Assembly: GCF_026309355.1 (NCBI RefSeq)
Contig: NZ_JAPJZK010000003.1
Span: forward strand, 62,001 to 126,000
DNA length: 64,000 nucleotides
Source of the DNA: Spartinivicinus marinus
GTDB taxonomy: Bacteria; Pseudomonadota; Gammaproteobacteria; Pseudomonadales; Zooshikellaceae
Reading direction: 5' to 3'
Shown: positions 19,461 through 56,965 of the stretch, one piece after another
How positions within the stretch are numbered: position 1 is the first letter of the stretch
How the letters are laid out: every line of letters starts with the position of its first letter
The notes under the pieces: generated by a model
What the model was told of the DNA's origin: nothing
Seen by the model: only the letters and a program-made list of their open reading frames with translations
The model's database searches: none
Position numbers and translations under genes: made by a program

Positions 19461-19504
19461 ATATTTTTTTATCATAGACAGCATGAAAATTTTATGAATA
19501 ATAA
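19461..19504 (+). promoter_or_regulatory. late-type promoter element, copy 1
   Basis: A-T7-ATC (ends 19473), then 25 bases, then a -10-like TAATAA (19499-19504). Same spacing as five other copies. It would start transcription near 19511, at the first base of a structured leader. Confidence 0.65.
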
Positions 19505-19510
19505 CAATTC

Positions 19511-19626
19511 ATGCAGGCGGGTTACCCGTAAGTTGAAACTGTTCATTCCCTCCTTTACCCCCTTACCCGCCTGCTTTCTCCTTATGACCCTTTGAGTTTG
19601 CAGGCTTAGTGCCTGCTTTTTTTTTT
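19511..19626 (+). ncRNA. predicted ~116-nt structured RNA or attenuator leader
   Basis: The predicted transcript starts about seven bases after the copy-1 promoter and ends at the terminator. GCAGGCGGGT (19513-19522) pairs perfectly with ACCCGCCTGC (19565-19574). The terminator stem is GCAGGC/GCCTGC. Because GCCTGC at 19569-19574 can also pair with GCAGGC at 19600-19605, the first stem and the terminator share an alternative anti-terminator pairing. No ORF with a ribosome site is visible inside. It is either a free small RNA or a leader that controls read-through into the tail operon. Confidence 0.55.
19600..19626 (+). terminator. intrinsic terminator between tandem late promoters
   Basis: GCAGGC-TTAGT-GCCTGC followed by ten T residues. 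It would stop transcripts from the copy-1 promoter before the copy-2 promoter begins. Confidence 0.9.
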
Positions 19627-19648
19627 GCCCATTATTTTTATAAGGTGC

Positions 19649-19693
19649 AATATTTTTTTATCATGGACGCTCCTGTTTTTTTCTGAATAATAG
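19649..19693 (+). promoter_or_regulatory. late-type promoter element, copy 2
   Basis: AATA-T7-ATC (ends 19662) and, 25 bases on, TAATAG (19688-19693). TGAATAATA is shared with copy 1 at the identical distance. It precedes the spike/fibre operon starting at 19759. Confidence 0.7.
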
Positions 19694-19758
19694 ATCTTGT
19701 TCTACATGTAAAAGCCAGCCTTAGGGCCTGCGCTTTATTAAATTGAGGGGGCTGTTGG

Positions 19759-20358
19759 ATGATTAAAAAACTCTGTGCCGTCTCATTGGTAAGTCACCCG
19801 AAAGTGCTGGCACAAGGGGCTTTCAACGGTGAATACTTGATTGTTGACCAGTTAACTCCTTTAAGTGGGCGGCTTGAGCAGTGGCAGCCAGGATTATTAG
19901 AGACACTCAATCATACATTGAATAAACAGTTTCTGATTTTAGTAGAAGACGCTAGTCGTTTATTTAATATGGGTTATACCTTGACCTTGGATCAATCCGC
20001 ACCGGCAGAAAACCGCAGTTATCAAAATATTGCTCTGGATTATTATTTTGCTTTAAGTGGTTTAGGGGAAATCCAAGGTAATCAATTAGGTAATATTATT
20101 TTTCAACATGGCTTGCAACGTCATCAAATTCACCGAAATTCGATTAATATTGATAAAGACGACAAAGGCCGCAATCGTTATGACATTGATTACCAGAGAT
20201 TTACCGGTTATCAACGAGCGGTTTTATTATTAGTACTGGGAGCCTTACACTTTAATCCCGCGTCTCATGACTATTTAACCCTATTATTAGGCAGTAAACC
20301 CCCTGATAAGCTAGCCCACTTACCGCCAGGATTAGCGGCGATTATCCGAGGGCGCTAG
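19759..20358 (+). CDS. unknown phage protein, first gene of the spike/fibre operon
   Basis: A 199-residue protein, preceded by a strong GAGGGGG ribosome site. The FLILVEDASRLFNMGY segment and a later RFTGYQRAVLLLVLGAL helix resemble the acidic strands of RNase H-like nucleases, but the match is too weak to name. It is followed within two bases by a baseplate gene, so it belongs to the virion operon. Confidence 0.55.
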   Translation: MIKKLCAVSLVSHPKVLAQGAFNGEYLIVDQLTPLSGRLEQWQPGLLETLNHTLNKQFLILVEDASRLFNMGYTLTLDQSAPAENRSYQNIALDYYFALSGLGEIQGNQLGNIIFQHGLQRHQIHRNSINIDKDDKGRNRYDIDYQRFTGYQRAVLLLVLGALHFNPASHDYLTLLLGSKPPDKLAHLPPGLAAIIRGR

Positions 20359-20359
20359 C

Positions 20360-20668
20360 ATGCAACATGCGCGGCTATCCCCGTTAACGATCCAGGATCC
20401 CTTATTACGTACTCAGTTTTATAAGGCATTGCGTAATCCACTGCCTGAATGGCAAATCCATGAAGTGGCCCTGGATGAAGTGTTGATGCCAGAGTTAATT
20501 TCGCTTCGCTTTTATGGCACTCCCCAGCTCAAAAAAATTGTGGTGATTATTGCTCAGCTAGACGACATGCGCGGGGCATTAAAAGCAGGCACAACCCTAC
20601 AGTTGCCGCCCATTAAATGGATTCGCCAACAAATCAAAGCCTATGCTGATTCTGAGGGGCGCGCATGA
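20360..20668 (+). CDS. baseplate wedge protein, gp53/tail-X-like
   Basis: A 102-residue protein with the pattern of small baseplate proteins that carry a LysM-like end: LISLRFYGTPQLKKIVVIIAQLDD, then ALKAGTTLQLPPIKWIRQQI. T4 gp53 and P2 gpX share this layout. It would sit at the hub-wedge contact. It overlaps the next gene by four bases. Confidence 0.65.
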   Translation: MQHARLSPLTIQDPLLRTQFYKALRNPLPEWQIHEVALDEVLMPELISLRFYGTPQLKKIVVIIAQLDDMRGALKAGTTLQLPPIKWIRQQIKAYADSEGRA

Positions 20669-21735
20669 ACCCTTTTAAAGGCGTAAATTTTCGGCATCAG
20701 GACCGTGAGTTTGCGGAGCTACGCCGCCAACTACGTCAGAGCCGAGGCAGTGCCCGACGCACCTTATCACCGAATCAAATCCGCATGGCCATTCGCACGG
20801 GGGAAATGCCCCCCAATGCGGAAGTATTAATCGGTACCCGAGAAGACGGCACCCCATTTACTATCGAGGATTTAACCGGGTTTGCTCAAGCCCAAAAACG
20901 CCTGGCTAAGCAGTTTGGTTCGGCTAAGGGCGTGCCTACAGATCAGCTAATTGCTTCATCTCGGGCGATTGATGTGGAACGGGCTAACCTGGAGATTCGC
21001 TCCGCTCGACTTTATAAAATACACGGCTCTACCCTTACCTTTAGCGTCACAGCCAGCGGTAAATACCAAGCCCAGTTTCACCAGGTCAAAGTCAGGTTAG
21101 AAGACTGGTGGCGACATTTAACTGATGCAGGCAACGTTAACCGAGCCATGACCCAAACCCTGGCCGGCCCGGTATCGTTTGATTGTGATTGTGGGCGTCA
21201 TCAATTCTGGTATCGCTATGTCGCGACGGTGGGTGGATTTGCGATTCAGCCGTATGAAAAAGACTTCCCCAAAGTACGTAACCCACAGTTACGCGGCTGC
21301 TGTTGTAAACATGTATTGAAGGTGTTTCGGGCTTTAAAAAGCCCTACCGTGAAAACTCAGTTAACCCAACAAATGATTCGCCAGGCTGAACAGGCGGGTT
21401 TTGCTGGCGATACCCGTCATCAGTTCATGACTCGGCAAGATCATCAGCAACTCAGCCGGGCGCGGGTGGGTGAGTTAAACCAGGAAAAAATTCGTGCTGA
21501 ACTGGCCAGGCAAGCGAATTTAGGGTTACGCCGTCACGTAAATACACCCGCTAACCGTAAAAAAATTAATCGTGTGAGAACGAAAATGACTCAACAGCTA
21601 ACCGCACAACAAAGAGCCCAAATCCAACAAGAATTAGCGTTTGCTCAGCGTTACAACATACCGGCAAATACCGTGTACCAAAAATTTGCGGATGAATTAG
21701 GGATGTCTGCAGAGGCCATTCAACAGCAATTATGA
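20665..21735 (+). CDS. SWIM zinc-finger protein in tail operon
   Basis: 356 residues. The centre has a SWIM-type zinc site (C-x-C-xn-C-x-H): FDCDCGRH near residue 174, then a run of cysteines and GCCCKHVLKVF near 213-222. The N-terminus is basic, with RRQLRQSRGSARR. The C-terminal third is helical and Gln/Ala/Arg-rich. SWIM domains bind DNA or proteins. Being tightly packed in the tail operon (four-base overlaps on both sides) suggests a structural or ejected protein. Specific role unknown. Confidence 0.6.
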   Translation: MNPFKGVNFRHQDREFAELRRQLRQSRGSARRTLSPNQIRMAIRTGEMPPNAEVLIGTREDGTPFTIEDLTGFAQAQKRLAKQFGSAKGVPTDQLIASSRAIDVERANLEIRSARLYKIHGSTLTFSVTASGKYQAQFHQVKVRLEDWWRHLTDAGNVNRAMTQTLAGPVSFDCDCGRHQFWYRYVATVGGFAIQPYEKDFPKVRNPQLRGCCCKHVLKVFRALKSPTVKTQLTQQMIRQAEQAGFAGDTRHQFMTRQDHQQLSRARVGELNQEKIRAELARQANLGLRRHVNTPANRKKINRVRTKMTQQLTAQQRAQIQQELAFAQRYNIPANTVYQKFADELGMSAEAIQQQL

Positions 21736-22232
21736 TTCAACCCCAGGACTTTTTAGCATTAACTGAACGGCTGGCGAGTGATACGAAACAATTTTTATTT
21801 CAGTCGCGGGATACTCGGCAAGTGATGTTATTTAAGGCTCTGCAAGACCAGGCGTCAGATCCTTTGGACTTGGTAGGTACTCTGGAACAACGCGAAACCA
21901 CTGTCAATTATGCAGCACCGATTATTGTGAAAGCGCGTTTTTTCCCCAATGACAATCCACAAAATTTATTAGCATCAGGGTTTCAGTCAGCGCCTGATTT
22001 TGAAAGCCCTAAAACGGTCTTGCTCGATTCAGAGCCCGTGCCTGAGCAAAGCATTCTCTGGTGTGAAGATCGTTTACCCAATGACAAGAAAACCGTGGAA
22101 TTATTTTATGTATTGGCTGCTACCCCAATTGGCAAACACGGTTTGGTGGGCGCTAAACACCAGGTATTGCCCATGAGTCATGCCGACACACAAGCATTAC
22201 TGGCTTTAATTGATGAGGTAACCCATGATTAA
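21732..22232 (+). CDS. unknown tail-associated protein
   Basis: A 166-residue protein overlapping both neighbours by a few bases, so co-translated. There is no recognised domain. The middle is beta-rich (PIIVKARFFPND) and a weakly hydrophobic segment follows (VELFYVLAATPIGKHGL). It lies just before the tail fibre and could be a fibre-attachment or baseplate protein, by position only. Confidence 0.5.
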   Translation: MIQPQDFLALTERLASDTKQFLFQSRDTRQVMLFKALQDQASDPLDLVGTLEQRETTVNYAAPIIVKARFFPNDNPQNLLASGFQSAPDFESPKTVLLDSEPVPEQSILWCEDRLPNDKKTVELFYVLAATPIGKHGLVGAKHQVLPMSHADTQALLALIDEVTHD

Positions 22233-23754
22233 TGCGAATAGCTGGCCACAACAGCCGGCTAATGATTTACGCATAGATACTGCATGGCGTGAGAATTACT
22301 CTGGTGCCACGATAAACCGCAAACTAGCTGGCGTGTTACCCACCGGGATTTATAGCGGTTTTCATGTCACGGTTGATACAGAAACCCCTTTTCAAATTTT
22401 GGTGGGTGATGCGATTGAAGAGTCGATAGCCGTGGTTGAAACCCAAGGTTATTCACTGACTGCACGGATGCCTGCTGGAATGCAAAAACCATTAACGATA
22501 CAACCAGGTGACACCCAACATATTGTGATTACTGTGGATTACCAGCAGCACCAAGTGAGTACGGTTGAGCTGGTGGTGACCCCTACCCTCACCCCACATA
22601 GTGTGGTGTTAGCTACCCTGCAAGTGCCGTCAGATGCTGAAATGTTAACTGCAAGTATGCTGGATATCAGTCGACGTATCGAGCGAATCCCGGTCTTAAT
22701 GCATGAGCAAAAGGAAAATCCCCATCCCCAATATCAGCTGGTAGCTAACATGCCACGCATTATTGATCAGTTAAATGCCGATCAAGCCGATGCGTGTTTA
22801 TCGGCACGGCAAGGTAAAAAACTGCATGAACTCATTAAAAACCTTCCACCAACTATTGATCATTTACGCTCGCAATCAACGACTGATACCTTATCCGCCA
22901 ACCAGGGGCGTATTTTAAAAGAAATGATTGATACCATTAATGCCTTTTTATCGTCAGACAGCGATGAAATTGAGTCATTAAAAAATATTGTTGAGTATAT
23001 TAAACAAAATAAAGAAAACCTACAGAACTTAGGTATCGATAATATTGCAGGGTTACGAGATGCTTTAAATACCAAACTGGATAAGGCCCGATTTGACCAA
23101 CTGGCTATCCCAGATGTAGCTCAATTACCCGCCGTATTAGCCAGTAAAGCCAATGACGAGTCGGTTTATAAAAAAACGGGCGGCACACTATCAGGCTCCG
23201 TGCATTTTGATATTGTTCAAGGCGCATGGAGCCATGGCATTAACTGGACTGGTTTAACGGATATATTTTCAATTCATGTGCGTGAAACCGCAGGTGGTGA
23301 AACTTGTGGGCTGTATTTTCAAGCTCAAGATAACACGAATGATTTATTTGTATTTGAGCACTACAACGATACTCAACCTAAACAGATTTTAGTAATGGAT
23401 CATAATGCTGCGACCATGGATGTTAATTTTACCTGCAATGGGGCGATTTACGCGAAAGGGGATGTCACGGCATTTTCAGATCGACGATTAAAACAACATA
23501 TTAACCCTATTTCCTCGCCACTAAATAAATTGCACCAACTTGGCGGTTACCACTATCAGCGCTCTGATACGGGTGATTATCAAGTGGGGGTAATTGCTCA
23601 AGAAGTACAACAAGTATTACCTGACGCAGTAAGAACAACAGAGGACGGCTATCTATCCGTTAACAGTACTGGCGTGGTCGCTTTATTAGTGGAAGCGGTG
23701 AAAGTCCTTTCTCACAAAGTCTCTGTTTTAGAGGAGCAATTGCATGGCGGTTAG
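22225..23754 (+). CDS. tail fibre with C-terminal S74 intramolecular chaperone
   Basis: 509 residues. The N-terminal 150 are likely the baseplate-attachment part. Then come NPHPQYQL and two copies of a D-x-LSA-x-QG fibre motif. The last 92 residues are a peptidase S74 domain: SDRRLKQHI with S418, D419 and K423, GYHYQRSDTGDYQVGVIAQEVQQVLPDAV, and a terminal coiled coil. S74 domains guide trimer folding of fibres and then cut themselves off. It binds the host cell, with the next gene as the probable tip. Confidence 0.88.
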   Translation: MINANSWPQQPANDLRIDTAWRENYSGATINRKLAGVLPTGIYSGFHVTVDTETPFQILVGDAIEESIAVVETQGYSLTARMPAGMQKPLTIQPGDTQHIVITVDYQQHQVSTVELVVTPTLTPHSVVLATLQVPSDAEMLTASMLDISRRIERIPVLMHEQKENPHPQYQLVANMPRIIDQLNADQADACLSARQGKKLHELIKNLPPTIDHLRSQSTTDTLSANQGRILKEMIDTINAFLSSDSDEIESLKNIVEYIKQNKENLQNLGIDNIAGLRDALNTKLDKARFDQLAIPDVAQLPAVLASKANDESVYKKTGGTLSGSVHFDIVQGAWSHGINWTGLTDIFSIHVRETAGGETCGLYFQAQDNTNDLFVFEHYNDTQPKQILVMDHNAATMDVNFTCNGAIYAKGDVTAFSDRRLKQHINPISSPLNKLHQLGGYHYQRSDTGDYQVGVIAQEVQQVLPDAVRTTEDGYLSVNSTGVVALLVEAVKVLSHKVSVLEEQLHGG

Positions 23755-24610
23755 GTGTGAAGGGCCAATCACATTTACGGATATTGCCACTGAATTTAAA
23801 GGCAATAAACCGTTCAGCTTATCGCAGTATTACCGGGGTAAAAGCCTGGTTCCTGATGCCCCTTCCAATGCCAAAATTGCCACAACAGGGGTTATTGCCT
23901 TTAGTCAGTTTTACTGTAGTGCTAATCAGGTAATTAAACGTATCAGTAGCGCGGTAGTGAATGGGACCAATGCCGATGCTTGGTTTACACCAGGCGAACG
24001 ACAGGCCTCGTGTATTTTAATTGTCAATCCAGGGGTGTATGTCACCGGGCATGGTGGGGCTGATCGACATGGTGGCGGTCATGGTAATGCTGGGGGTACT
24101 GGCATGAATGTCAATATGGCGCATTTTCCTGGTGGGTTAACGTTAGAAGTCTACGGCCATATTTGGGGAGGCGGTGGCGGCGGCGCGGGTGCAAACTATC
24201 GGCACAGTTATACCGGTGGGCATGGAGGAACAGGTATTGTCGTGAATCATGGCACCTTAAGACTAAAAGTCCATCCGGGGGGCAGTGTTGTTGGCGGCGG
24301 TGGTGGAGGTGGTAGTTCAAGAGAAAATAAAAATGATGGAGGTGGTGGCGGACAGCCCTACGGTGGAAGAGGGAGAGGCGAGTATCATAGCGGCGCAGGT
24401 CGAGGCAGCTTATATGGTCCAGGTCATGGTACTGATTATCGATGGGAGTCTTGTCGTACTCATGGTCGTGGTGAAGAGCGCACTTGTAGTAATAAACGAA
24501 ATTATTCCGGTGCGGGTGGAGCTGTTGGCCATCATGGCGCGGGAGGTAACCGCGGTTCATCGGGTGGGCGTGCTGGTGCGGCTACTGCTGGGAGTGTTCA
24601 ATGGCTATAA
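23744..24610 (+). CDS. glycine-rich receptor-binding adhesin, gp38-like
   Basis: 288 residues. The N-terminus (ITFTDIATEFKGNKPFSLSQYYRG) is like the attachment part of T-even type gp38 adhesins. From about residue 100 the protein is dominated by glycine runs (GGGGGGAGAN, GGGGGGGSS, GGGGG) separated by short Tyr/His/Asn/Ser loops. In S16-type gp38 such runs form polyglycine II helices with variable loops that touch the receptor. It overlaps the fibre gene and has a GAGGAG ribosome site. This is the likely host-range determinant. Confidence 0.82.
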   Translation: MAVRCEGPITFTDIATEFKGNKPFSLSQYYRGKSLVPDAPSNAKIATTGVIAFSQFYCSANQVIKRISSAVVNGTNADAWFTPGERQASCILIVNPGVYVTGHGGADRHGGGHGNAGGTGMNVNMAHFPGGLTLEVYGHIWGGGGGGAGANYRHSYTGGHGGTGIVVNHGTLRLKVHPGGSVVGGGGGGGSSRENKNDGGGGGQPYGGRGRGEYHSGAGRGSLYGPGHGTDYRWESCRTHGRGEERTCSNKRNYSGAGGAVGHHGAGGNRGSSGGRAGAATAGSVQWL

Positions 24611-25320
24611 CCTCGCCCCCCACACTGACTAACCTATCAAGAGTAGATAAAGCGTTTGGATGTCACCTGGTAAAAGCCTATGAAAACATTGGATCTGATG
24701 ACTCTAATTTACAATCTTTTTTTATTAGACCATCCCATCATAAAATATTTAGAGGTGAATTAGACAGTCCTTTAGTATTCATGAAGCAATTGGGCAAACA
24801 GGGTTATTTTCAACAACAAAACCAAACGGCTGCCGTTACCCTACCCTTAATTTATTATTTTCGGGATATCAGTTTAGCCAGTGCCGATCCCGAACATTAT
24901 GGTGGGATCTATCAAGATATACTCTGGTTAAAGGATCTAGAAACACCTTATCAACTACAGGTGATGTATTTTGATATTACCTATCGATTGGTTTTTGTCG
25001 GTCATGAGCGCAATCACCCGGAACAATTAGCCCTTGCCTGGTATTTTTTTATTAACCAGAAACAACATAATCACCACAAAATTCCATTGATCTATCTGAT
25101 TGCTGATGAAAAATTCACCGCTGAAGCTTATATCCGAGAACCGGAAACCCTACTGGCAACAGATATTAGTTTGGACCCACATCAAGAAACCCGGTTATTT
25201 GCCCTGGAAGTACAGCACACCTTATTAACACCCATTCTGGTAGGAAATGAGAGCCAGTTAATCGAACCTATTCAGTTTAATTTACGGGTATTTCCGTTTG
25301 GCAGCCAACCCCGCATTTGA
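24601..25320 (+). CDS. unknown virion-operon protein
   Basis: 239 residues, beta-rich, unknown family. Notable stretches are LIYYFRDISLASADPEHYGGIYQDILWL and a C-terminal FNLRVFPFGSQPRI. It overlaps its neighbours at both ends and precedes the hub and spike genes, so a baseplate hub or sheath-terminator role is plausible by position only. Confidence 0.5.
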   Translation: MAITSPPTLTNLSRVDKAFGCHLVKAYENIGSDDSNLQSFFIRPSHHKIFRGELDSPLVFMKQLGKQGYFQQQNQTAAVTLPLIYYFRDISLASADPEHYGGIYQDILWLKDLETPYQLQVMYFDITYRLVFVGHERNHPEQLALAWYFFINQKQHNHHKIPLIYLIADEKFTAEAYIREPETLLATDISLDPHQETRLFALEVQHTLLTPILVGNESQLIEPIQFNLRVFPFGSQPRI

Positions 25321-26323
25321 ACATGTTTTAATTCAGGAAGTTCGTTATCAGGATAAACCCTTAGATTTAAGCTGGTTAATCGAAGCGGTTTATATTGAAA
25401 CATTGGATTTATCCGGGCCTAAATTAATCTTAAAATTGAATGATCGTGAAGCGATTTTTCGAGATGATTTAGGCATTAAGCCTTTTGAGACATTAACAGT
25501 TACCCTTGCCGATCCCTACCGACGGGATGAATTAGACACGATAGAGCGCTTTGCGATTCTTACTATGCCCATGGATGCTGAATCCGTTTTAACCCTGAAT
25601 TGTTTGAGTGAGGTGATTTTTCAACTAAAAACCCCGGCTGTGATGGCCCGTTTTTTTGTGGGAGAAGCCCCTGAAAGCGTGGTTAAATCCCTGGTAAATC
25701 ACACAACCATACAATCCAATGCCTTTCCTGCCATCGAGGATTATCATCTATTGCCGGGTATGCGGCCCAGTCGCTTACTTAAGCAAATTGCCCGTGAAAC
25801 AGCAGCGGTGATTCATTATCAACGCCAGCAGTTTACGTTTAAGCCCATTTCAACACTACTTGAAAAAACGGCTCTCATTTCCTACCACTATGACGATGCA
25901 CGCCAGCAAAATCAGATTGTTTCACTCAAAAAAACCAATGCGGATCCACTCATCCAGAGTTTTACGCAACGCCAGTTTACGGGTTGGCACTTAGCTCAAG
26001 GCATTCTTAATTCGAGTAATGCAAATACTACTGATTCGTCCACTGTACCGCGTGAATTGGTAGGATTTAAGAGCCCAATTACGTTAGCCAATTTAAATAC
26101 CCTGTTAACGCCAGCACTGGAATTTACTTGCTTAGGCAATGGAGCGCTGCAAGCGGGTATTACTCTTCAGCTGGTGTTTAATCGTAACCATACGGAACTA
26201 CCGATTGATGAAAGTTTACCCGACAAAGTGATTATTCAGTCAGTGGCACATCGCTATTCCGCCCAAAAATACCAATGCCGGGTTAAAACCTGTTTGCCTT
26301 TAAACAATGAACAATACCACTGA
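25298..26323 (+). CDS. baseplate hub protein, gpD/gp27-like
   Basis: 341 residues. It starts at TTG inside the previous gene and overlaps the spike gene by 17 bases. The order is typical of hub proteins: an early FEHVLIQEVRYQDKPLDLSWLIEAVYIET domain, LLPGMRPSRLLKQIARETAAVIHYQ in the middle, and a beta-rich end (GALQAGITLQLVF, then VAHRYSAQKYQCRVKT). It would form the trimeric hub that holds the spike at the tube end. Confidence 0.65.
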   Translation: MAANPAFEHVLIQEVRYQDKPLDLSWLIEAVYIETLDLSGPKLILKLNDREAIFRDDLGIKPFETLTVTLADPYRRDELDTIERFAILTMPMDAESVLTLNCLSEVIFQLKTPAVMARFFVGEAPESVVKSLVNHTTIQSNAFPAIEDYHLLPGMRPSRLLKQIARETAAVIHYQRQQFTFKPISTLLEKTALISYHYDDARQQNQIVSLKKTNADPLIQSFTQRQFTGWHLAQGILNSSNANTTDSSTVPRELVGFKSPITLANLNTLLTPALEFTCLGNGALQAGITLQLVFNRNHTELPIDESLPDKVIIQSVAHRYSAQKYQCRVKTCLPLNNEQYH

Positions 26324-27041
26324 GTTAAATCCTCCCCTCTCACCAAGTCATTATCACGGCCAGGTTATTAATACCGATGACCCGAAAAAATGCCAGCGGG
26401 TACAGGTACAGATTTTAGGATTAACCGAAGGGGTGCCAACAGACAAATTACCCTGGGCCGAATATTTATTACCCATTGGTGCTCGTTATAACGCTGGCAG
26501 TTTTACTCCAGTACAGGTAGGTGACTGGGTTTGGGTGGATTTTCCGTATATCAGCCATGGTCAACCCGATACACGACGCCCGCGGATTATTGGCAGCGCG
26601 CACTTTTGTCCAGAAGGGCAGCCCAATACCCCACATGAGTCGTGGGCGGGGCCTGAATCCTTTAATCATCAACGTACTGATGAAGAGCCCAAGCCAACTG
26701 CAGCACAATATCACCAATCATCCGTGATTACACAGCATGGGATTACTGTCGAGTATGAACCGCCAGGTTGTTACCGTGTCACACATCGCGCAACCGGCAC
26801 CGCTTTTGAGTTAAACGAGCAAGGTGTCGTATTACACAGTGAACAAAAAGCCTTGTTTTCCAGCAAAACCAACACCAAACTGATTGCGGGTAATCAATTA
26901 ACCATTAATGTCTTAGCCGGCGATACCATCTTGAATGTGCAAAGCGGCAATCTATCCATTAAATCGGCAAAAAACATTATTTTTGAAGCAGGACAAAATT
27001 TTATTGTGAAGGCGAAAAAATTTATTGAGGAGTTGGGGTAA
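26307..27041 (+). CDS. central spike protein with gp5-type OB domain
   Basis: 244 residues. The N-terminal OB fold reads DPKKCQRVQVQILGL, VQVGDWVWVDFPY and RRPRIIGSAHF, as in T4 gp5 and P2 gpV. From about residue 150 onward short beta repeats form the needle (FELNEQGVVLHSE, LTINVLAGDTILNVQSGNLSIKSAKNIIFEAG). No lysozyme domain is present. The spike pierces the outer membrane, and the PAAR tip follows at the next base. Confidence 0.88.
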   Translation: MNNTTELNPPLSPSHYHGQVINTDDPKKCQRVQVQILGLTEGVPTDKLPWAEYLLPIGARYNAGSFTPVQVGDWVWVDFPYISHGQPDTRRPRIIGSAHFCPEGQPNTPHESWAGPESFNHQRTDEEPKPTAAQYHQSSVITQHGITVEYEPPGCYRVTHRATGTAFELNEQGVVLHSEQKALFSSKTNTKLIAGNQLTINVLAGDTILNVQSGNLSIKSAKNIIFEAGQNFIVKAKKFIEELG

Positions 27042-27334
27042 TGCCGGCTATTGCAATATTAGGCTCCATCTGTAGTGGTCATGGCTGTTGGCCACCTCGT
27101 GCAAACAGTGAAGGCGACCCCCTGCATACCATCAACGGAAAACCAGTGCATTGTAAGGGGCATCGCTGGCTACCCCACACCTGTCCTACCATACCTGAAA
27201 CGCATGCTGGCGTGACTTCAAGTGGCAGTCCCAACCATATTATTAATGGCAAACCTTTAGCGCGGGTTGGTGATAGTATCAGTTGTGGACCGACAATTGC
27301 GACAGGAGAGTCGCTTCACCAAGTCAAAGAGTAA
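27041..27334 (+). CDS. PAAR-domain spike tip
   Basis: 97 residues with PAAR repeats: SICSGHGC, INGKPVHCKGHRW, TSSGSPNHIINGKPLARVGDSISCG. Histidines and cysteines would bind the metal at the point of the needle. It is short, with no toxin extension, and overlaps the spike stop by one base, so the two are made together. Confidence 0.9.
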   Translation: MPAIAILGSICSGHGCWPPRANSEGDPLHTINGKPVHCKGHRWLPHTCPTIPETHAGVTSSGSPNHIINGKPLARVGDSISCGPTIATGESLHQVKE

Positions 27335-27578
27335 TCAATTGTAAGAAGCCGATAAATTAGACAATAACTGTACTCTATTAAACAGATTAATACTGATACA
27401 AAAAATAATTACTACAAGTGTAAATATTCATGCCTGTTGTGCCGTATATAGGATACAATTGGTATTCTTTTTTGTGTTGTTGCCAGTAAGGAATACAGTA
27501 TGCGATTTATCCATTGGCATATAAAAATGGAATCAATTCATTTTGCTTTCCCCCAATTAAACTCCCCTCATTTTTAAT

Positions 27579-28193
27579 ATGAATACTTATAAGCACGCCT
27601 TAATATCGGTTAAACACTGGGGAGGATGTATTGATGACTACTATCCAATCCATGATTTTATCGATAGCACAAAGGCTCTATGCAGTGATAGTCGACACCG
27701 TATACTCCATACTTTATGGGGAATAAGGGAAATTGTTGTACCTGTATTTGGCAATACCATTACCAATAGTGATAGCAAGACAGTTGATGTCAAAGACTTA
27801 TGTGAAAAAGACCATTTATTAATCGATTATCACTACCGATTTATTCCTACTCTATCAGACTTTGTTGAATTAATTGATACTTCAGCCATCCCCAACTGGA
27901 CAACAACCATTAATACAATGCATGGCTTGTATGCTGAAAACCCAGCCGTGAGCAAACTATTAATGTCTCCCTTAGCCAATACAGGCAAGCTTGCATCGTT
28001 GTTGTTCACACATAATAGCTGGTTTATCAATGAGATTTTACCGCTAGTGATGGGAACGCAGCCACTACTCACTGAATTTGCTATCTCGCCAAATGATATT
28101 TTTAATAACATGGATTTTGAGTTATGGCTGAATAATGGCTCTGCTCCGCCGCCCAGTGCTGTCAAACTTCAAAAAACTAAAGTCGCTGTATAA
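27579..28193 (+). CDS. DUF6915-type protein, possible moron
   Basis: 204 residues. The first 110 match the DUF6915 pattern: HALISVKHWGGCIDDYYPIHDFIDSTKALCSDSRHRILHTLWGI, then GNTITNSDSKTVDVKDLCEKDHLLIDY and RFIPTLSDFVELI. The rest is helical and unfamiliar. Function unknown. It lies between the PAAR gene and the capsid module and, with the next gene, forms a two-gene insert not needed for virion assembly in related phages. Confidence 0.65.
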   Translation: MNTYKHALISVKHWGGCIDDYYPIHDFIDSTKALCSDSRHRILHTLWGIREIVVPVFGNTITNSDSKTVDVKDLCEKDHLLIDYHYRFIPTLSDFVELIDTSAIPNWTTTINTMHGLYAENPAVSKLLMSPLANTGKLASLLFTHNSWFINEILPLVMGTQPLLTEFAISPNDIFNNMDFELWLNNGSAPPPSAVKLQKTKVAV

Positions 28194-28237
28194 TCCCGTT
28201 AAATTTACGCTTTTGAAATTCAAATGGTGCCACATTT

Positions 28238-29017
28238 ATGAGCCAAAAAAGTTATGTCATTCGCAAACTTGCCTTTCACTACAATGACGAATGTTCCTAT
28301 GTACATTGTTCAGGGGGAATAGAAGCTTATTTTCAAGATAAAGAAGAAGCCACCCAACGTTACAAAGCATTAGAGTGCAAAGCATTTAGAAATGAAGATT
28401 TATTTGATTTAGAGCAACTGCACCCATGTGGTGATGGTGACGAAGAAACTTGGCTGGCATTAAATAACTATTTTGTTGAGTCTTTTGGTGAACCCTTCCT
28501 GGAACCTGATGATGAAGGCAATTATGACTTTTATCATGATGTAGAAATCTATATACCAGATCATGCAACTGATGATCAAATATGGACTATCAGGGAGATG
28601 ACAGGTATTCGTTTTCATGAGCTAGCAGAATTCGATCGCCCTGAACCAGTATTTTATACCATATGGTTACCAACACAAAATGAATACTACGGTTACGATG
28701 AAGAAGCACCTCGTCTCTTCAATAGCTATGACTATGCACTTCGTGTTGTTAAGAACAGTAGTTACCTGTTTAATGAAGATATTGTATTGAAAGGGGAATT
28801 AGAAGATCTCAGTAACCAGCCGATACTGCTTGAAGCACTCATAAGTAAACACTCTGGTTTATCGAGAACAAAACGATCTAAAAATTTAAAGATAAAAAAG
28901 GATGGAGAAACGCTCGTTGTTGTGAATGACTTGCTAAAACAACCTTTATTTGAAATCAAAGAATATTCGATAGAAGATGCCAAAAAAATTGACCATAGTA
29001 TGTATGAAGAAATGTAA
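28238..29017 (+). CDS. unknown acidic protein, possible moron
   Basis: 259 residues, strongly acidic in the first two thirds (GDGDEETWLALNNYF, LEPDDEGNYDFYHDVEIYIPDHATDDQ) with a basic tail (RTKRSKNLKIKK). There is no signal peptide or membrane helix. No family recognised. It sits 44 bases after the DUF6915 gene and is closed by a terminator, so the pair is a separate unit. Confidence 0.55.
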   Translation: MSQKSYVIRKLAFHYNDECSYVHCSGGIEAYFQDKEEATQRYKALECKAFRNEDLFDLEQLHPCGDGDEETWLALNNYFVESFGEPFLEPDDEGNYDFYHDVEIYIPDHATDDQIWTIREMTGIRFHELAEFDRPEPVFYTIWLPTQNEYYGYDEEAPRLFNSYDYALRVVKNSSYLFNEDIVLKGELEDLSNQPILLEALISKHSGLSRTKRSKNLKIKKDGETLVVVNDLLKQPLFEIKEYSIEDAKKIDHSMYEEM

Positions 29018-29075: not shown

Positions 29076-29179
29076 TTTATTATATAACTGAGCCAGCTCA
29101 CTATAGCGTTGTTCCTTAATCTTTGCCAATAGCAAATGTCTCAAATCCTGTAAGCAATTTACGATATTTAAATAACTGC

Positions 29180-29224
29180 AATATTTTTCAGTCAGCGGGT
29201 GGTTTTAATCTTCTATGTTAGGGT
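29180..29224 (+). promoter_or_regulatory. late-type promoter element, copy 3 (diverged)
   Basis: AATATTTTTCAGTC (ends 29193) and, 25 bases on, TAGGGT (29219-29224). It is weaker than the other copies but has the same spacing, and it lies 40 bases before the major capsid gene. Confidence 0.45.
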
Positions 29225-43574: not shown

Positions 43575-43605
43575 CAGCAATATATAATATTGCTGACATT
43601 TTTTT
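43575..43605 (+). terminator. hairpin with T run, overlapping promoter copy 4
   Basis: CAGCAATA-TATAA-TATTGCTG is followed by ACA and seven T residues. It could end transcription while its T run also forms the next promoter element. Confidence 0.5.
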
Positions 43606-43639
43606 ATCGTCGTCCTTTTCCTCGAATTTACAGTATCCT
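43596..43639 (+). promoter_or_regulatory. late-type promoter element, copy 4
   Basis: ACA-T7-ATC (ends 43608), then TATCCT 25 bases on (43634-43639). It lies 30 bases before the tail-protein-I gene. Confidence 0.6.
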
Positions 43640-47011: not shown

Positions 47012-48763
47012 ATGAATGCTGTTTTTAAGCCGATTACACAAGCGGTTAGCTGGTCAGGCATTGAGGAGGCATTTTTTCTGTTGCTGGAGACACCACCGAC
47101 AGAAAGTGCTTTTCAGGTAATGGGAGCGATTGATACCCTCAAACAAACACCGCTAGGCGAGTTTAATTCGCAAGTTCAAGCTGCCTGGTTACAACTGAAT
47201 CACTGGCAGCGTAGACTACAAATTCACCCTGATGCCTCATTGGCTGAGCTGATCCACCGGAATACTCCTTTTTGGGACTTGAAAGGCCTACTGAATCAAT
47301 GGGGTCCGCCAGATAATATTGGCCAAGCCCAACTGGAAAAAAACAGAGCCCAGGGTCAACAGCTTCGCGAGCAGCTGATTGAATCAGAAAATGCTCAGTT
47401 AGCCAGTGAAATACAACAATTACAACAGTCACTGGATGACATTAAAGCGCCTTATCAAAAGTCCCATAAGGAAATCAGCCGCATATTATCGGATATACGA
47501 GAACAGCATGGCTTAACTGAAATGAGACTGAATTTAGAAGTTGAAATCAGTTTATTCAACAACAAGGCCAAGCATCGAAATAGAGATTATGAAGCGCTGG
47601 TAAAAGAAGAGCAGGCCATTCGTGCTAAAGCGGATCACTATCAACAATTAGTCAATCAATATATAAAGCCGGTTCAAGACGAGTGGAATCAAACAGCGCT
47701 CTACAAACCCGATGAAGCCACCAAACAACAAGTCGTTGAAACACAACAGGCAATTAACCAAAAAGCTGAACAGCTCATGTCGGGTGTTTATGATCAACTA
47801 ATTAATCAATCGACTATCTCTGCGCAGGTAGCTCAGCAATGGGCAAAAGAGCAGTCTATTTCAACAACTGTTATAAACCGACTCAAAAAAGTGGGTTACA
47901 GTAAAACCCAGCTATTAAAAGACATGGCTGAATTTTATCGGCTCACCCATGGTCGATTATCTCAGGTATCCGTTGTCAGTGATGGAAGAAAACGAGCAGC
48001 AGCTTCTGTTACAGAGGGGATCGTCTATGTTGATGGGGATTTTGATAAAACGACCTTGTTTCATGAAATGGCCCATCTATTAGAAAACGATCCAGTCACC
48101 AAAGCCACAGCACAACAGTTTGTGGAATCACGAAAAGAAGGGCCACTTCAACCATTACAAGAATTGGCAGGTAACACCAACTACCGATCAGATGAAAAGG
48201 CCTACCCAGATTCGTTTATTAACCCTTATGTAGGTAAATATTATGCTGATGGCAGTACAGAAGTCATGTCGATGGGGTTAGAGCACTTTGCTTCTTCAGT
48301 TAAATTATACGAGCTATTCAATAACGACCCGGATATGTTTGATTGTTTATTGGGTTTTTTAAACAATACATCGACTGCAGAGCAAGACCTTTTTAAACAA
48401 ATCCGCCAGCAAAAGAGTGCTGACCATGATTTTTATCAACAACTGTTTAAACGAGTCAAACCAATTAAAATCACTAAGGAATTTATTACCGCAGGGCCTT
48501 TGATGGGGTATCAGTTTTTAAACTCAAGTACCAGAGACCGCCATACAGGACGCAAAAAAACTGGTCGATTGGTGGTGGCGCCAGATGGCTCAAATGATTT
48601 TATGGCATCAGAGTTAGATGCTAAAGCCTGGGCTTATTTACACCAGATGAATCAGCAAGGCATTCAATCTCATCCAATAGAAAACTTAAAAAAACTGATT
48701 ACCCATCGCCAGGCACCTGATTGGTTTCAGCCTGGAATGGTCATTCCTGAACTAAAAAGTTAA
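47012..48763 (+). CDS. coiled-coil protein with zincin metallopeptidase domain
   Basis: 583 residues. The first 290 are mostly helical coiled coil. The C-terminal half has HEMAHLLE (H351, E352, H355) preceded by EGIVYVDGDFDKTTLF, and a later EVMSMGLEHF, whose Glu could be the third zinc ligand. Phage polyvalent proteins often carry such zincins, possibly to process virion or host proteins after injection. The target is unknown. Confidence 0.6.
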   Translation: MNAVFKPITQAVSWSGIEEAFFLLLETPPTESAFQVMGAIDTLKQTPLGEFNSQVQAAWLQLNHWQRRLQIHPDASLAELIHRNTPFWDLKGLLNQWGPPDNIGQAQLEKNRAQGQQLREQLIESENAQLASEIQQLQQSLDDIKAPYQKSHKEISRILSDIREQHGLTEMRLNLEVEISLFNNKAKHRNRDYEALVKEEQAIRAKADHYQQLVNQYIKPVQDEWNQTALYKPDEATKQQVVETQQAINQKAEQLMSGVYDQLINQSTISAQVAQQWAKEQSISTTVINRLKKVGYSKTQLLKDMAEFYRLTHGRLSQVSVVSDGRKRAAASVTEGIVYVDGDFDKTTLFHEMAHLLENDPVTKATAQQFVESRKEGPLQPLQELAGNTNYRSDEKAYPDSFINPYVGKYYADGSTEVMSMGLEHFASSVKLYELFNNDPDMFDCLLGFLNNTSTAEQDLFKQIRQQKSADHDFYQQLFKRVKPIKITKEFITAGPLMGYQFLNSSTRDRHTGRKKTGRLVVAPDGSNDFMASELDAKAWAYLHQMNQQGIQSHPIENLKKLITHRQAPDWFQPGMVIPELKS

Positions 48764-48795
48764 CGGCTTTATACTACATAAGGCATAGCCAATTT

Positions 48796-49512: not shown

Positions 49513-49592
49513 CTAATATTAAAGGGCAGCTATTTAGCCTGCCTTACGCTTTTATTTTTATTCACTTTTAAAAAACAACAATTATTTTTCCC

Positions 49593-49637
49593 AATATTTT
49601 TATATCAGCGGTCGATTTTCACATTTCAATTTACAAT
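49593..49637 (+). promoter_or_regulatory. late-type promoter element, copy 5
   Basis: AATATTTTTATATC (ends 49606) and, 25 bases on, TACAAT (49632-49637), a near-consensus -10. It lies 60 bases before the DNA methylase gene. Confidence 0.55.
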
Positions 49638-49697
49638 GGTTCCAATTGTTGAATAGGAGATTTTTTCAATCTCCTAAGCTGTTATTGGAGCCAGTAT

Positions 49698-50180
49698 TTG
49701 AGCCTTTCTTCTCACCAGTCTGCACGCATGAAAAACGATGAGTGGCTTACACCACCTAGTATTTTGACGACTCTTGGCTCATTTGATTTAGACCCATGCT
49801 CTCCTATCAATCGCCCCTGGCCTACAGCGACAACTCACTATACCAAACAAGATAATGGCTTAACAAAGCCCTGGTTTGGCCGGGTTTGGTTAAATCCCCC
49901 TTTTGGCCAAGAAGCCAAAAAATGGTTTAAAAAAATGGCTGAGCATAATAACGGTATTGCACTCATTCCTGCTCGAACTGAAACACATCTCTTTTTTGAG
50001 TTTATCTGGGATAAAGCCAGTGCCATTTTATTTTTAAAAGGTCGACCGCGTTTCTATACCGTTGATGGAAAAGCCGCCCCGTTTAATTCAGGTGCGCCTA
50101 TCTGTTTAGTGGCCTACGGGCAACAAAATGCAGTCCTGCTCAAGCAATCGTCTCTCGGTTTTTGTGTTTGTTGTAAATAG
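49698..50180 (+). CDS. phage N6-adenine DNA methyltransferase
   Basis: 160 residues. The family signatures are present: DEWLTPPSILTTLGSFDLDPCSP and the catalytic VWLNPPFGQEAKKWFKK (NPPF). AILFLKGRPRFYT and GAPICLVAYG close the domain. It methylates adenine in phage DNA, shielding it from restriction or marking it for packaging. TTG 49698 is chosen for its GGAG eight bases upstream; ATG 49728 is the alternative. Confidence 0.88.
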   Translation: MSLSSHQSARMKNDEWLTPPSILTTLGSFDLDPCSPINRPWPTATTHYTKQDNGLTKPWFGRVWLNPPFGQEAKKWFKKMAEHNNGIALIPARTETHLFFEFIWDKASAILFLKGRPRFYTVDGKAAPFNSGAPICLVAYGQQNAVLLKQSSLGFCVCCK

Positions 50181-50218
50181 TCGTTTATTAATCACTTTCA
50201 TGGTTAATGTAAAGGTTT

Positions 50219-56200: not shown

Positions 56201-56344
56201 AAGCTCTATGCAAACAAAGACAGTTTGAAATCGCGTTATGGAGCCTCATTTACGATGGACAGTCCAGGATTTGAAGGGTCATGGTGGTGGCTACGTTCAC
56301 CGGCAAACGAAGATTTACAACAGATAACTGAATTATTGGTGTAG
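50219..56344 (+). CDS. giant DarB-like methyltransferase-helicase antirestriction protein
   Basis: 2041 residues. First comes an N6-adenine methyltransferase: EYYTPTPVAEGIWDAL, NVLEPSTGAGVFSA, and the catalytic NVPF near 197, a variant of NPPF. Then a superfamily 2 SNF2-type helicase: LCFGTGLGKTFSGL (Walker A, ~842), VIVDEAHRFKN (~1037), LTATPLTSSP, and the C-terminal RKGRGVRQGNTQSR (~1430). A coiled coil follows at ~1500-1610, then further small domains. P1 DarB has this plan and is injected with the DNA to protect it from type I restriction. It lies directly upstream of portal and protease genes, as in P1. Confidence 0.88.
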   Translation: MQNTSDTSFQAIHAAHSLSDLINAFWGYLKPADPIEPEPTPDDSTTEATDTLFGLQKGGKVYREKINAQTREILERVKGDPEALTATDRAILRQYSGRGGLKNEASLFEYYTPTPVAEGIWDALSVNGFANGNVLEPSTGAGVFSATKPEGVIISGAEIDETAAQVNQLLHPTDSIKNQSFEELCANTPDNSFDSVVGNVPFGEGRQFALHDPAYRQTKSIEQYFVLRAIDKAKPGALIALIVPPRIVDNTRLHAFRAKVSKKAEFLGAHKLPSKTFSQQGTDTVTDLIVLKKHPADLAEKIDALSKEVLEEANVLWTPFIKGQYFKDEGKRFIHKRPDSTTKAAQQSLNNTAIKRALAHKFTSRIDWDLLEITEATVPLYQDGDTRVINGLMHTLKDSEWIADVKGQPNVIDKATYGVGSIEELTALLESPTGLLQLSFEQVESAFTTWPALFKPHQRDVITHARQQPDALREQVLRGGLLGCQVIRLKSQLQQGEAADDLGGLQALIKAEFERYGPPSRSKKLIIKDSTAKAWGAFSNATDKDGELSPLLQGQVTEQAQGYDPTHALSIVEYLLNVEKQPYVELADIQRLYNGSPPIENLGDITRFDALAITPDGHILPTNDYYSGDVVDKSQQLLSVMADEKDQRLIDKWQAQIDEMQRRRSHTALKDVQFSLRHKTLDRHYLLDFLKEQQGFQFSYKVEKSVATRLPNGSIEVSQTRVVDTKDPSGQFSAIARWGEKPKGFELQLLNYLNGKPTRVKEEDQAYFRERMKRLESQFNLYLQTHVNAEQIEQDYNDQVNRYITPELSGENLNLSDTSGAVNLHDYQNKAIRQLSEQGAGFLCFGTGLGKTFSGLGLAQYNLDMGRAKRTLIVTPDSVLENWGRNAQQFFTKGKPFLLVGYHTKKDNDDLVVTEVVVDDQGNPKLDNNGKPIKREVMVKDDPQAIFKKCWEIPHGKYSLIIMSHQVYERLPLKPETKLRYQEKWFNNNLISNTELNKATESYKKEKEKARIQGEYGDEGTTKKDQLPYFEDLGVDSVIVDEAHRFKNSHKLGSKGNNLAYLSKVSPSQRAKDMSLKMDFLRDNNNGRGPYMLTATPLTSSPVEAFNMLSLTMPMEKFHQLGIYTPDDFIDVFGEIDTVDKLKITGDSVAKEGLVGFRNLSGLRSLFKEQAIIKNADDVGLEIPQAEEVTTDCQLSDEQAAIYEELRKEAEKGSDRPIFSVMREMERVATDMDLYSGTLTSYIPKKHHKALLAVLAGMPETKTINVIIEGEKDKQDILLDDELDEASDPMQLVIHQAFEKEFEQGLKKHGIPITDVTHPLTPKYSQLMENLRAEYDGGGKQLIFSSEKSQHRKLTRLIQHHLPMDMKKIGIINADEAAGAKTQKLAHAYNAGSIQIIIANERAEEGVDLQHGTSAIHNLTFPWTPDKLTQRKGRGVRQGNTQSRVKIYNYVAQSTLDEYRLHLIGRKEGWINKILTDNTIHQTKNGDMLDPEELAMLLASDPEAYQQKVAEAKAKRAKQETAKVRADIVRELKSLLNAEAALIEHQTENTALAKEKLQSRVDKNSSSIAAIKIQLVHSDDPALQKELARYQSQHDKLSQQLANFDEDHATKGEQLEHKIKRHRVYLLDKAEEGKLFFDPSVITNTDQVYIIDSDYVITVGTVLEVSDRIWGDNAAYKVVSIAAKHGFLNTINVEGQTKQFWLQELGRDEIKLSSLSAADFDKQQLLSKRLTYENLDSIEPSIYHQLVDQINLEDDGFLIQTSSGALQLINGRQATTKQKGQVLWPESTNQTQCKRVMEFYATFIREEPDESERFEDLESVMRTWFGRSYERKVTYYLDSATQADVNAQLAKTWQILFQEQGLATSDHQKNLDLFYGKLDELSSSLFGTVKGLGANFNEIQHWVDNFIASQENQLIMAADQQATREAEAAVRNHDDFREIPKHLADQLAEVGITARFNTTDMTTATKKVKRRTWGGEFIPAFEALFLHDRYAKNGKLYANKDSLKSRYGASFTMDSPGFEGSWWWLRSPANEDLQQITELLV

Positions 56345-56346
56345 CA

Positions 56347-56775
56347 ATGGCAATTAACGTATTTACTGAAACTGAATTACAACCCCTGCTCGATGAGGCT
56401 ACAGCAAACCAGACTAAGGAACAGTTTATTAGCCGCACCGTTGAAAACCTGATCAATACGTTACGGCGTAACGCTTTGCACTACCGAGCCTATGGTCCCT
56501 ACTGGTGGTGGCTAAAAAAATTACTAATGGAGCAAGGCGATACACGTACATTATTTCCAGTCGGTAATCTCGATGAGGAAATACTGAATCAATTGACATT
56601 CAATGACCCGGCTTACGGGATCGTTGCTGCTTGGCAATATGCTGAGTGGCAGTTTGAAATGGGGGCACAGGCGAATACTCAACATGTGCTGGATACTGAA
56701 GAGGGTGACTTCTTGACCTATGAACTCTTTGATGAAGAGCTAGAAGTCAGAGCAGCGTTACGCCAGGCTCATTGA
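56347..56775 (+). CDS. unknown protein between DarB-like and portal
   Basis: 142 residues, helical, with many aromatic residues (HYRAYGPYWWWLKKLLM, GIVAAWQYAEWQFEM) and an acidic end. It starts two bases after the giant gene's stop. A similar WWW stretch ends the giant protein (GSWWWLRSP), so the two may interact. No family recognised; P1 has a small gene at the comparable place. Confidence 0.5.
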   Translation: MAINVFTETELQPLLDEATANQTKEQFISRTVENLINTLRRNALHYRAYGPYWWWLKKLLMEQGDTRTLFPVGNLDEEILNQLTFNDPAYGIVAAWQYAEWQFEMGAQANTQHVLDTEEGDFLTYELFDEELEVRAALRQAH

Positions 56776-56920
56776 TTAGTGGCTAACTTTCTAATTGAAG
56801 ACTGCACCGCTCCCACCGGGAAGTGGGCTATAGCTATCACCCACTTTCCATGGAACATTAAATTGTTCCACGTGTAACGCATGTAGCAGTGCTACACAGC
56901 ATATATACCCACCCACATAC
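56776..56920. other. intergenic hairpins before the portal operon
   Basis: TGGAACA-TTAAAT-TGTTCCA (about 56850-56870) is one clear inverted repeat. CCCAC-CGGGAA-GTGGG near 56815 and GTAGCAGTGCTAC near 56884 are shorter. They may be terminators or regulator sites ahead of the promoter at 56921. Confidence 0.4.
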
Positions 56921-56965
56921 AATATTTTTTTATCTGCCGTACTTTACATCAAACCATTATATACT
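56921..56965 (+). promoter_or_regulatory. late-type promoter element, copy 6
   Basis: AATA-T7-ATC (ends 56934), then TATACT 25 bases on (56960-56965). It lies 19 bases before the portal start codon. Confidence 0.7.

What the first reader, a model, noticed from the sequence alone, without database searches (positions are those of the whole stretch)
19461..56965. A shared bipartite promoter element precedes every virion module
Six sites share A-T7-ATC (four exact: 19461, 19649, 43598, 56924; two diverged: 29180, 49593), then exactly 25 bases, then a hexamer of the form TAnnnT (TAATAA, TAATAG, TATCCT, TATACT, TACAAT, TAGGGT). Five sit 19-70 bases before the first gene of a structural module and one precedes a predicted leader RNA. 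The T-rich block ends about 26 bases before the -10, too far for a sigma-70 -35, so it looks like a phage activator site. P1 late promoters use a different activator box, so this would be a new late-control system.
Basis: seen in the sequence. Interest (0 to 1): 0.78.

Follow-up and report, generated by a model that had tools for sequence, protein, structure and literature searches.

The report
Late-gene promoters of marine phage-plasmids
A repeated DNA switch stands before the particle-making genes of a virus that lives as a plasmid in a marine bacterium; it looks like a late-gene control system unlike that of the model phage P1, and a small DNA-binding protein encoded on the same plasmid is its likely operator.

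Summary
Six sites with a T-rich block and a TAnnnn hexamer exactly 25 bases later lie on one strand of a P1-related phage-plasmid. A matrix from those six finds three unseen site classes outside the window, on this plasmid, a second phage-plasmid of the same cell and Spartinivicinus ruber pA (27-32; background there at most 12.1, in the window 16.5). Between species, box (94%) and hexamer (96%) are kept where spacer and flanks drift. The box is wider than reported, about -52 to -34, covering the -35 position. It precedes late modules and also a nuclease-like/ssb operon and an unassigned ORF. P1's activator Lpa is absent. Vibrio and Photobacterium relatives have a different box (TGTTGMTGC-N19-TAnnnT) in the same register, mostly before the same modules. 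The regulator candidate is an 88-aa helix-turn-helix protein outside the window (C3 20507-20773), found in 10 of 72,556 plasmids and 0 of 50,697 phage records. Best reading: activator-dependent late promoters, distinct from Lpa control. Promoter activity, binding and the activator's identity are inferred.

The parts
19459..19504 (+). Site 1: box CGATATTTTTTTATC (19459-19473) and hexamer TAATAA (19499-19504); precedes a structured terminated RNA
   Evidence: counterparts in pA (L001 5567) and C4 (85709) and in same-genus genome G071
19511..19632 (+). Predicted leader or small RNA ending in an intrinsic terminator (stem 19600-19616, then T10)
   Evidence: fold -34.9 kcal/mol, z -5.6; terminator-like site; pA counterpart z -3.7; only one Rfam match, far below its gathering score
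19648..19693 (+). Site 2: box CAATATTTTTTTATC (19648-19662), hexamer TAATAG (19688-19693), before the tail module starting at 19759
   Evidence: counterparts in pA, C4 and G071
29179..29224 (+). Site 3: diverged box CAATATTTTTCAGTC, hexamer TAGGGT, 39 bp before gene 29264 (31% identical to P1 gene 23, which is annotated major capsid protein)
   Evidence: counterparts pA 110448 and C4 75847
43594..43639 (+). Site 4: box TGACATTTTTTTATC, hexamer TATCCT, before gene 43671 (homologue of P1 gene 16, tail tube family) and the DarA-type genes that follow
   Evidence: counterparts in pA and C4
49592..49637 (+). Site 5: box CAATATTTTTATATC, hexamer TACAAT, before ORF 49698 (methyltransferase-like) and the DarB-type gene 50219
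   Evidence: counterparts C4 57477 and, with one substitution in the box, pA 132025
56920..56965 (+). Site 6: box CAATATTTTTTTATC, hexamer TATACT, 18 bp before the portal gene 56984
   Evidence: counterparts in pA, C4 and G071
56984..58582 (+). Portal protein, 37% identical to P1 Prt over 79% of its length, 44-52% to relatives that share the helix-turn-helix candidate
19759..27334 (+). Tail/baseplate module downstream of site 2

Best explanation
The sites are the late promoters of a P1-related phage-plasmid. Each has a TAnnnn -10 hexamer (7 of 9 classes TAnnnT), mostly no good sigma-70 -35, and instead an activator box (CRATATTTTTTTATCAKSG) from about -52 to -34. During lytic growth a phage-encoded activator binds the box next to the -35 position and lets the host sigma-70 polymerase open these promoters together (class II activation; it would work like Mu C/Mor, or like lambda cI at PRM, the latter recalled). 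The best candidate activator is a small XRE-type helix-turn-helix protein of 88 aa, encoded outside the window on the strand opposite the late genes (C3 20507-20773; identical on C4). A sister system in Vibrio and Photobacterium phage-plasmids uses an orthologous protein and a diverged box in the same register. Shown: sites, spacing, conservation, gene positions, no Lpa and no plasmid sigma factor found, co-occurrence with the protein. Inferred: promoter activity, lytic timing, activation, and that this protein binds the box.
For: Out-of-sample recovery: a matrix from the six window sites puts first C3 18882 and 21313 (28.0, 27.2), pA 30818 and 32922 (28.0, 27.2) and C4 22569, 17354 and 14923 (32.2, 28.0, 27.2); these are three independent site classes with their orthologues. 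Next in those scans: 13.3 at C3 13668, itself the counterpart of C4 22569 with one T fewer, then 12.1 or less; inside the window the best non-site scores 16.5. With nine classes, 25 instances on C3, C4 and pA score 27.9 or more and the next is 13.2; all 25 are + on C3 and pA, - on C4. Ungapped footprint C3 versus pA at 8 sites: box 94%, hexamer 96%, spacer 77%, flanks 47-74%. The 15-mer CRAYATTTWTWTATC occurs 13 times on C3+C4 (0.26 Mb) and twice on the rest of the genome (6.6 Mb). Sister boxes: p0908 6 sites (26.8-33.4, next 11.8) and Photobacterium toruni 5 (26.5-32.7, next 11.6), which trained that matrix; V. campbellii 6 (21.9-33.4, next 16.2) and viral contig G295 6 (24.2-33.4, next 12.9), not in the training set but close kin. 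Regulator: of C3 proteins with homologues in p0908 and P. toruni but not P1 and outside the virion and lysis/packaging modules (four), the helix-turn-helix protein is the one, recombinase apart, with a regulator-type match. It is in 10 of 72,556 plasmids and, by one query, 0 of 50,697 phage records. Of the records examined, 8 of 8 with it (C3, C4, pA, p0908, P. toruni, V. campbellii, G295, G296) have boxes; 3 of 3 without a tblastn orthologue (P1, THAF64, G293) have none above 14.9 with either matrix. AlphaFold2: five helices, mean pLDDT 88.5; top solved folds include restriction-modification controller proteins and phage repressors.
Against: No transcript, binding or genetic data. The protein-box co-occurrence is confounded by shared descent: the 8 records are close by portal identity, and C3 and C4 are near copies. 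Foldseek E-values are 0.3 or worse. The profile behind the label (phrog_7950, 'transcriptional repressor') is a generic helix-turn-helix model: it matches 14 of 14 control genomes and 17 places in this genome, two of them the candidate, and G293, which has no box, has a match at 5e-9. Sites 1 and 2 have a fair -35 (TAGACA, TGGACG) 16 bp from AATAAT, so they may not need an activator. Some Spartinivicinus copies show a GATA-N6-TATC dyad, but the Vibrio box shows no clear one. p0908's best Spartinivicinus-type hit (23.5; V. campbellii counterpart 24.4) is not followed by an annotated gene for over 300 bp. The p0908 sites match the C3 pattern at 5 of 6 module heads only: 30815 has no separate C3 counterpart, and the counterpart of site 4 in V. 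campbellii, G295 and P. toruni scores only 10.2-11.4.
Confidence: 0.75

Rival explanations
1. Same promoters, but the activator is another phage protein or a host factor, not the 88-aa helix-turn-helix protein.
For: Other shared genes outside the late modules exist (phrog_503 nuclease-like, a 140-aa protein, a tyrosine recombinase). pA also has an HTH_ParB-type protein. The co-occurrence may be plain common descent.
Against: The helix-turn-helix protein is the only one of those, recombinase apart, with a regulator-type match; it lies on the strand opposite the late genes in all 8 records examined; those records are the ones with boxes.
Confidence: 0.35
2. Host sigma-70 promoters strengthened by an A/T-rich UP element, with no phage activator.
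For: A T-tract near -45 resembles an UP element (recalled); sites 1 and 2 have a 4-of-6 -35 at 16 bp.
Against: Other sites lack a -35: portal CCGTAC and terminase CCAGGT stand at 17 bp (read). The conserved part includes T and C at -39 and -38 and a mostly conserved G at -34, and the sister box is TGTTGMTGC with a weaker T run, which an UP element would not need.
Confidence: 0.12
3. A phage or host alternative sigma factor reads the box as its -35.
For: Box plus hexamer at fixed spacing is also what a sigma factor would need.
Against: All 12 Sigma70 region 2 matches lie on C1, none on C3 or C4; the host's own sigmas are not excluded. A 19-bp box ending some 20 bp before the -10 is unlike a -35 hexamer.
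Confidence: 0.06
4. The repeats are binding sites for partition, packaging or recombination and the -10 match is coincidental.
For: Repeated conserved sites on a plasmid can have such roles.
Against: One strand per plasmid, at module heads, fixed hexamer spacing conserved between C3 and pA; TA stands at that spacing in 6 of 80 control contigs.
Confidence: 0.03

Closest known systems
Phage P1 late promoters and Lpa (gp10)
   Same: Related virion genes; one activator-type promoter for each of several late modules; a -10 hexamer without a standard -35.
   Different: P1 uses AAGTGACTT-like boxes centred at -22 and Lpa; here the box ends near -34 and Lpa is not found. Kinship of the candidate with Lpa was tested only by tblastn and profile searches, which found none.
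Phage Mu Mor/C-activated middle and late promoters
   Same: Activator site upstream of or overlapping the -35, non-consensus -35, several late operons switched on by one phage protein (passages of PMC4461284).
   Different: Different box; kinship of the candidate with Mor/C was not tested.
Restriction-modification controller (C) proteins
   Same: Small helix-turn-helix proteins; among the nearest solved folds to the candidate.
   Different: No restriction system is implied; the fold match is weak (E 0.3-1).
Vibrio P1-like phage-plasmids p0908 and pVv01
   Same: p0908 carries the sister box and the orthologous protein. pVv01 is an active mitomycin-inducible phage close to p0908 (PMC4132613, read whole); record NC_025128.1, which by host and length is probably pVv01, has the protein.
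   Different: The box in p0908 is TGTTGMTGC-N19-TAnnnT; NC_025128.1 was not fetched; PMC4132613 does not discuss late promoters.

Membership tests
P1 Lpa-dependent late promoters | 9-bp box AAGTGACTT-like centred at -22 | tested here: not met
   The 11 annotated P1 late promoters were printed in register (two, LPpmgL and LPhot, deviate clearly); the nine Spartinivicinus sites were read by eye and show no such box.
P1 Lpa-dependent late promoters | Lpa gene (phrog_1704) | tested here: not met
   Found in 1 of 7 genomes or records searched, P1 only.
Mu C/Mor-type activated promoters | Activator box adjacent to or overlapping -35, with a -10 and a poor -35 | tested here: met
   Columns conserved from -52 to -34 and TA at -12/-11; architecture only, and two sites have a fair -35.
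Mu C/Mor-type activated promoters | Mor/C family activator | not tested
   No Mor/C profile search was made.
Sigma-70 promoter with UP element | -35 near TTGACA at 16-18 bp from -10 | tested here: inconclusive
   Scanned for sites 1 and 2 only: fair. Portal and terminase read by eye: poor.
Alternative sigma promoter | Sigma factor gene on the element | tested here: not met
   12 Sigma70_r2 matches, all on C1; the host's own sigmas are not excluded.
XRE/controller-type transcription regulator (candidate protein) | Helix-turn-helix fold | tested here: inconclusive
   Confident model; top matches are mostly XRE-type proteins but E is 0.3 or worse.
XRE/controller-type transcription regulator (candidate protein) | Binds DNA and activates transcription | not testable with these tools
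   Needs bench work.

The most novel reading that the evidence does not exclude
P1-type phage-plasmids have exchanged their whole late-control system several times while keeping much of the module order: Lpa with a -22 box in P1, a small XRE-type activator with a box at about -40 that has co-diverged with its protein between Spartinivicinus and Vibrionaceae, and a third, unrelated element at the -10 in Vibrio sp. THAF64. In this clade the same promoter type also drives a terminated structured RNA and a nuclease-like/ssb operon.
Probability: 0.45. Interest if true: 0.7.

Novelty: new variant of a known kind. Interest (0 to 1): 0.6.

Why it matters
P1 is the model phage-plasmid and Lpa its known late activator. 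If right, a marine branch runs a similar virion programme with a different activator and promoter class, so late control is a swappable part. It gives a way to predict late operons in poorly annotated phage-plasmids, and names one small gene as the lytic late switch to test. Two such plasmids in one cell carry identical candidates and near-identical boxes, which predicts that they switch on together.

Tried and rejected
Rejected: Lpa-type control; a plasmid-borne sigma factor; chance T-runs. Five matches of the 15-mer that are not at counterpart sites (G013, G003, two on C1, G071 C30) have no TA at the spacing; that G071 C30 is chromosomal was not checked. Rfam gave only sub-threshold matches for the leader and for the V. 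campbellii stretch. A first reading of pA gene 32639-32911 as the candidate's orthologue was wrong and was corrected to 32116-32382, which RefSeq covers with two small ORFs. The palindrome at C3 128455 / pA 6890 was left aside. Literature: no paper on late promoters of this clade was among the rows listed (1 of 1; 15 of 22; 10 of 10; 12 of 52; 12 of 16; 8 of 33; 6 of 20); only the held open-licence library was searched. The p0908 paper (PMC2168046) is not held. The P1 genome paper (PMC523184) was not read: that look-up failed on a search term and was not repeated.

Coverage limits: C3 and C4 were scanned in pieces, so a site or ORF across a piece border would be missed; the last 1,916 bp of C4 were not fetched. 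Of 10 plasmids with the candidate protein, 4 were fetched (pA, p0908, P. toruni, V. campbellii NZ_CP026318); the other Vibrio records, those of V. cholerae, V. vulnificus, V. parahaemolyticus and V. anguillarum among them, were seen in listings only. The sister box was first seen by eye in chosen upstream stretches and then scanned.
Full report
What is there. The window is bases 62001-126000 of contig C3 (137,004 bp) of a 6.88 Mb, four-contig genome. Its stretch 19400-44000 matches plasmid pA of Spartinivicinus ruber at 83.9% over 80% and no record of the phage collection by megablast. The late genes are P1-like: the portal is 37% identical to P1 Prt over 79% of its length, and many tail, baseplate, DarA- and DarB-type genes match P1. 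A second contig, C4 (121,916 bp), is a related phage-plasmid in the same genome; blastn pieces over 400 bp add up to 78 kb at 96.9%.

The sites. All six reported sites are real, with small coordinate corrections. A matrix (30 columns scored over a 47-base span) made from nine site classes gives 25 instances on C3, C4 and pA scoring 27.9-36.6 and then a gap to 13.2. Trained on the six window sites only, it puts 18882 and 21313 on top of the parts of C3 outside the window (28.0, 27.2), then 13668 (13.3, a counterpart of C4 22569 with one T fewer), then 11.6; pA 1-98000 and C4 1-40000 behave the same; inside the window the best non-site is 16.5, at C3 121630 on the minus strand. A core-only matrix without the hexamer ranks 21313 and 18882 first outside the window, and both have TAnnnT at the fixed spacing. 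Aligned without gaps at the box, C3 and pA keep 94% of box and 96% of hexamer positions over 8 sites, against 77% in the spacer and 47-74% outside.

Specificity. The 15-mer CRAYATTTWTWTATC occurs 15 times in the whole genome, 13 of them on C3 and C4. Of 23 genomes (own and relatives) 5 have it: this one, two of the same genus, and two others with one copy each. Five copies that are not at counterpart sites have no TA at +25. In 80 viral contigs picked only by the 15-mer, TA at +25 occurs in 6.

Position and extent. By column, the nine Spartinivicinus classes are conserved from about -52 to -34 and at -12, -11 and, less, -7. The box therefore covers the -35 position. Module heads with a site: tail, capsid-type, gene-16-type with the DarA-type genes, methyltransferase/DarB and portal in the window; outside it the lysis/packaging module (C3 21313), a nuclease-like/ssb pair (C3 18882) and a 472-aa ORF of untested function (C3 13668, counterpart C4 22569). 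The block 27579-29017 has no site.

The leader. Between sites 1 and 2 lies a 122-base stretch that folds far better than shuffles (z -5.6) and holds an intrinsic-terminator-like site; the pA counterpart folds likewise (z -3.7) and G071 has a similar sequence. V. campbellii and p0908 also have a T7-type box before a stretch without an annotated gene, downstream of pacB, but that stretch folds only modestly better than shuffles (z -1.8, 10 of 200 shuffles as good).

Relatives. In p0908, P. toruni, V. campbellii and viral contig G295 late modules are preceded not by this box but by TGTTGMTGC or a close variant, 19 bases before a hexamer of the form TAnnnT or CAnnnT. It occupies -40 to -32. p0908 gives 6 sites at 26.8-33.4 with the next at 11.8; P. 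toruni 5, next 11.6; V. campbellii 6 at 21.9-33.4, next 16.2; G295 6, next 12.9. p0908 and P. toruni sites trained the matrix; V. campbellii and G295 did not but are close kin. Five of the six p0908 sites head counterparts of modules that have a C3 site; the sixth (30815) heads the DarA-type genes, which in C3 follow site 4 without a site of their own, while the counterpart of site 4 has only a variant box (TGTCGTGGC-type, 10.2-11.4 in V. campbellii, G295 and P. toruni). G296, the best portal match outside the genus (52% there; 47.7% over a longer alignment), has mixed boxes: TGTTGMTGC or TGTTGATGT forms at 26.1, 25.0 and 18.9 (the gene after the second was not examined), by eye a TATCGATGC form before a DarA-type gene, and a T7-type box at 16.7. 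P1, THAF64 and G293 have nothing above 14.9 with either matrix.

The candidate activator. Comparing C3 proteins with p0908, P. toruni and P1, four shared genes missing from P1 lie outside the virion and lysis/packaging modules: a phrog_503 nuclease-like gene, an 88-aa helix-turn-helix protein, a 140-aa protein and a tyrosine recombinase. The 88-aa protein (C3 20507-20773, minus strand) is identical on C4, 89% in pA, and 44-50% in p0908, P. toruni and V. campbellii. By tblastn it is in 10 of 72,556 plasmids (8 Vibrio, P. toruni, S. ruber) and 0 of 50,697 phage records (one query). Pattern scans returned two genome contigs, one a weak Microbulbifer match, and five viral contigs, at least one of which repeats a genome contig. 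The AlphaFold2 model (7 sequences) has pLDDT 88.5 and pTM 0.77 with five helices; among Foldseek's first eight are C.BclI, CapH, C.AhdI, Aca1 and P22 C2, all at E 0.3 or worse. The PHROG label comes from a generic helix-turn-helix model. I put about 0.5 on this protein being the activator; co-occurrence is confounded by descent.

How it most likely works. Step 1, inferred: induction of the phage-plasmid expresses the activator from an operon on the strand opposite the late genes. Step 2, inferred: it binds the box and, from next to the -35 position, recruits or isomerises host sigma-70 polymerase at the TAnnnT -10. Step 3, shown in anatomy only: virion, packaging and lysis modules, and a few other genes, share this control. 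No plasmid sigma factor and no Lpa was found.

Known systems. P1 has 11 Lpa promoters with a 9-bp inverted repeat (passages of PMC10695390); Mu C works from a site upstream of the -35 (passages of PMC4461284). The present promoters resemble Mu's in layout and P1's in genomic use; the P1 membership features were tested and not met, and Mor/C kinship was not tested. pVv01, a plasmid close to p0908, is a working phage (PMC4132613, read whole). PMC8198154 and PMC10879196 were seen in passages only; other papers in listings only.

Verdict. A real, conserved regulatory element; a late-promoter class distinct from P1's is the best reading; the activator is named but unproven.

Noticed in passing
L032/L033 (Vibrio sp. 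THAF64 pTHAF64_c), e.g. 52850, 67496, 13423: Several late upstream regions share TTCCCCGTC right after a -10-like sequence, and TTCCGAAC recurs on both strands, often near -10-like sequences (operator-like); perhaps a third promoter type in P1-like phage-plasmids (read by eye, no chance test).
   Followed up: partly
L030 48450-48680; L025 (p0908 67902 and downstream): A T7-type box precedes a stretch of about 200 nt without an annotated gene that ends in a terminator-like hairpin, downstream of pacB.
   Followed up: partly
L030 about 48252-48270; p0908 counterpart in L025; L046 about 17515-17530: Shared inverted repeat TAGGAACAATGGTCCTA; may be a recombination site or operator.
   Followed up: no
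L008 2455-2490 (C3 128455); L002 6890: A TTTATCAGTGATAAA-type palindrome lies upstream of a 140-aa gene and has a counterpart in pA; it looks like a separate operator.
   Followed up: no
L002/L003 (pA): The P1-like phage-plasmid pA carries a gas vesicle gene cluster, an RHS gene and a VgrG-type gene by its annotation.
   Followed up: no
C3 and C4 of G000: Two related phage-plasmids in one genome with identical candidate activators and near-identical boxes; co-induction is predicted.
   Followed up: partly
L002 32116-32382: The candidate gene in pA is not annotated as one ORF in RefSeq; two small ORFs are listed under it.
   Followed up: yes
L033 13743-14171 (THAF64 62743-63171): A gene annotated as RNA polymerase alpha C-terminal domain protein lies among the structural genes of THAF64.
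   Followed up: no
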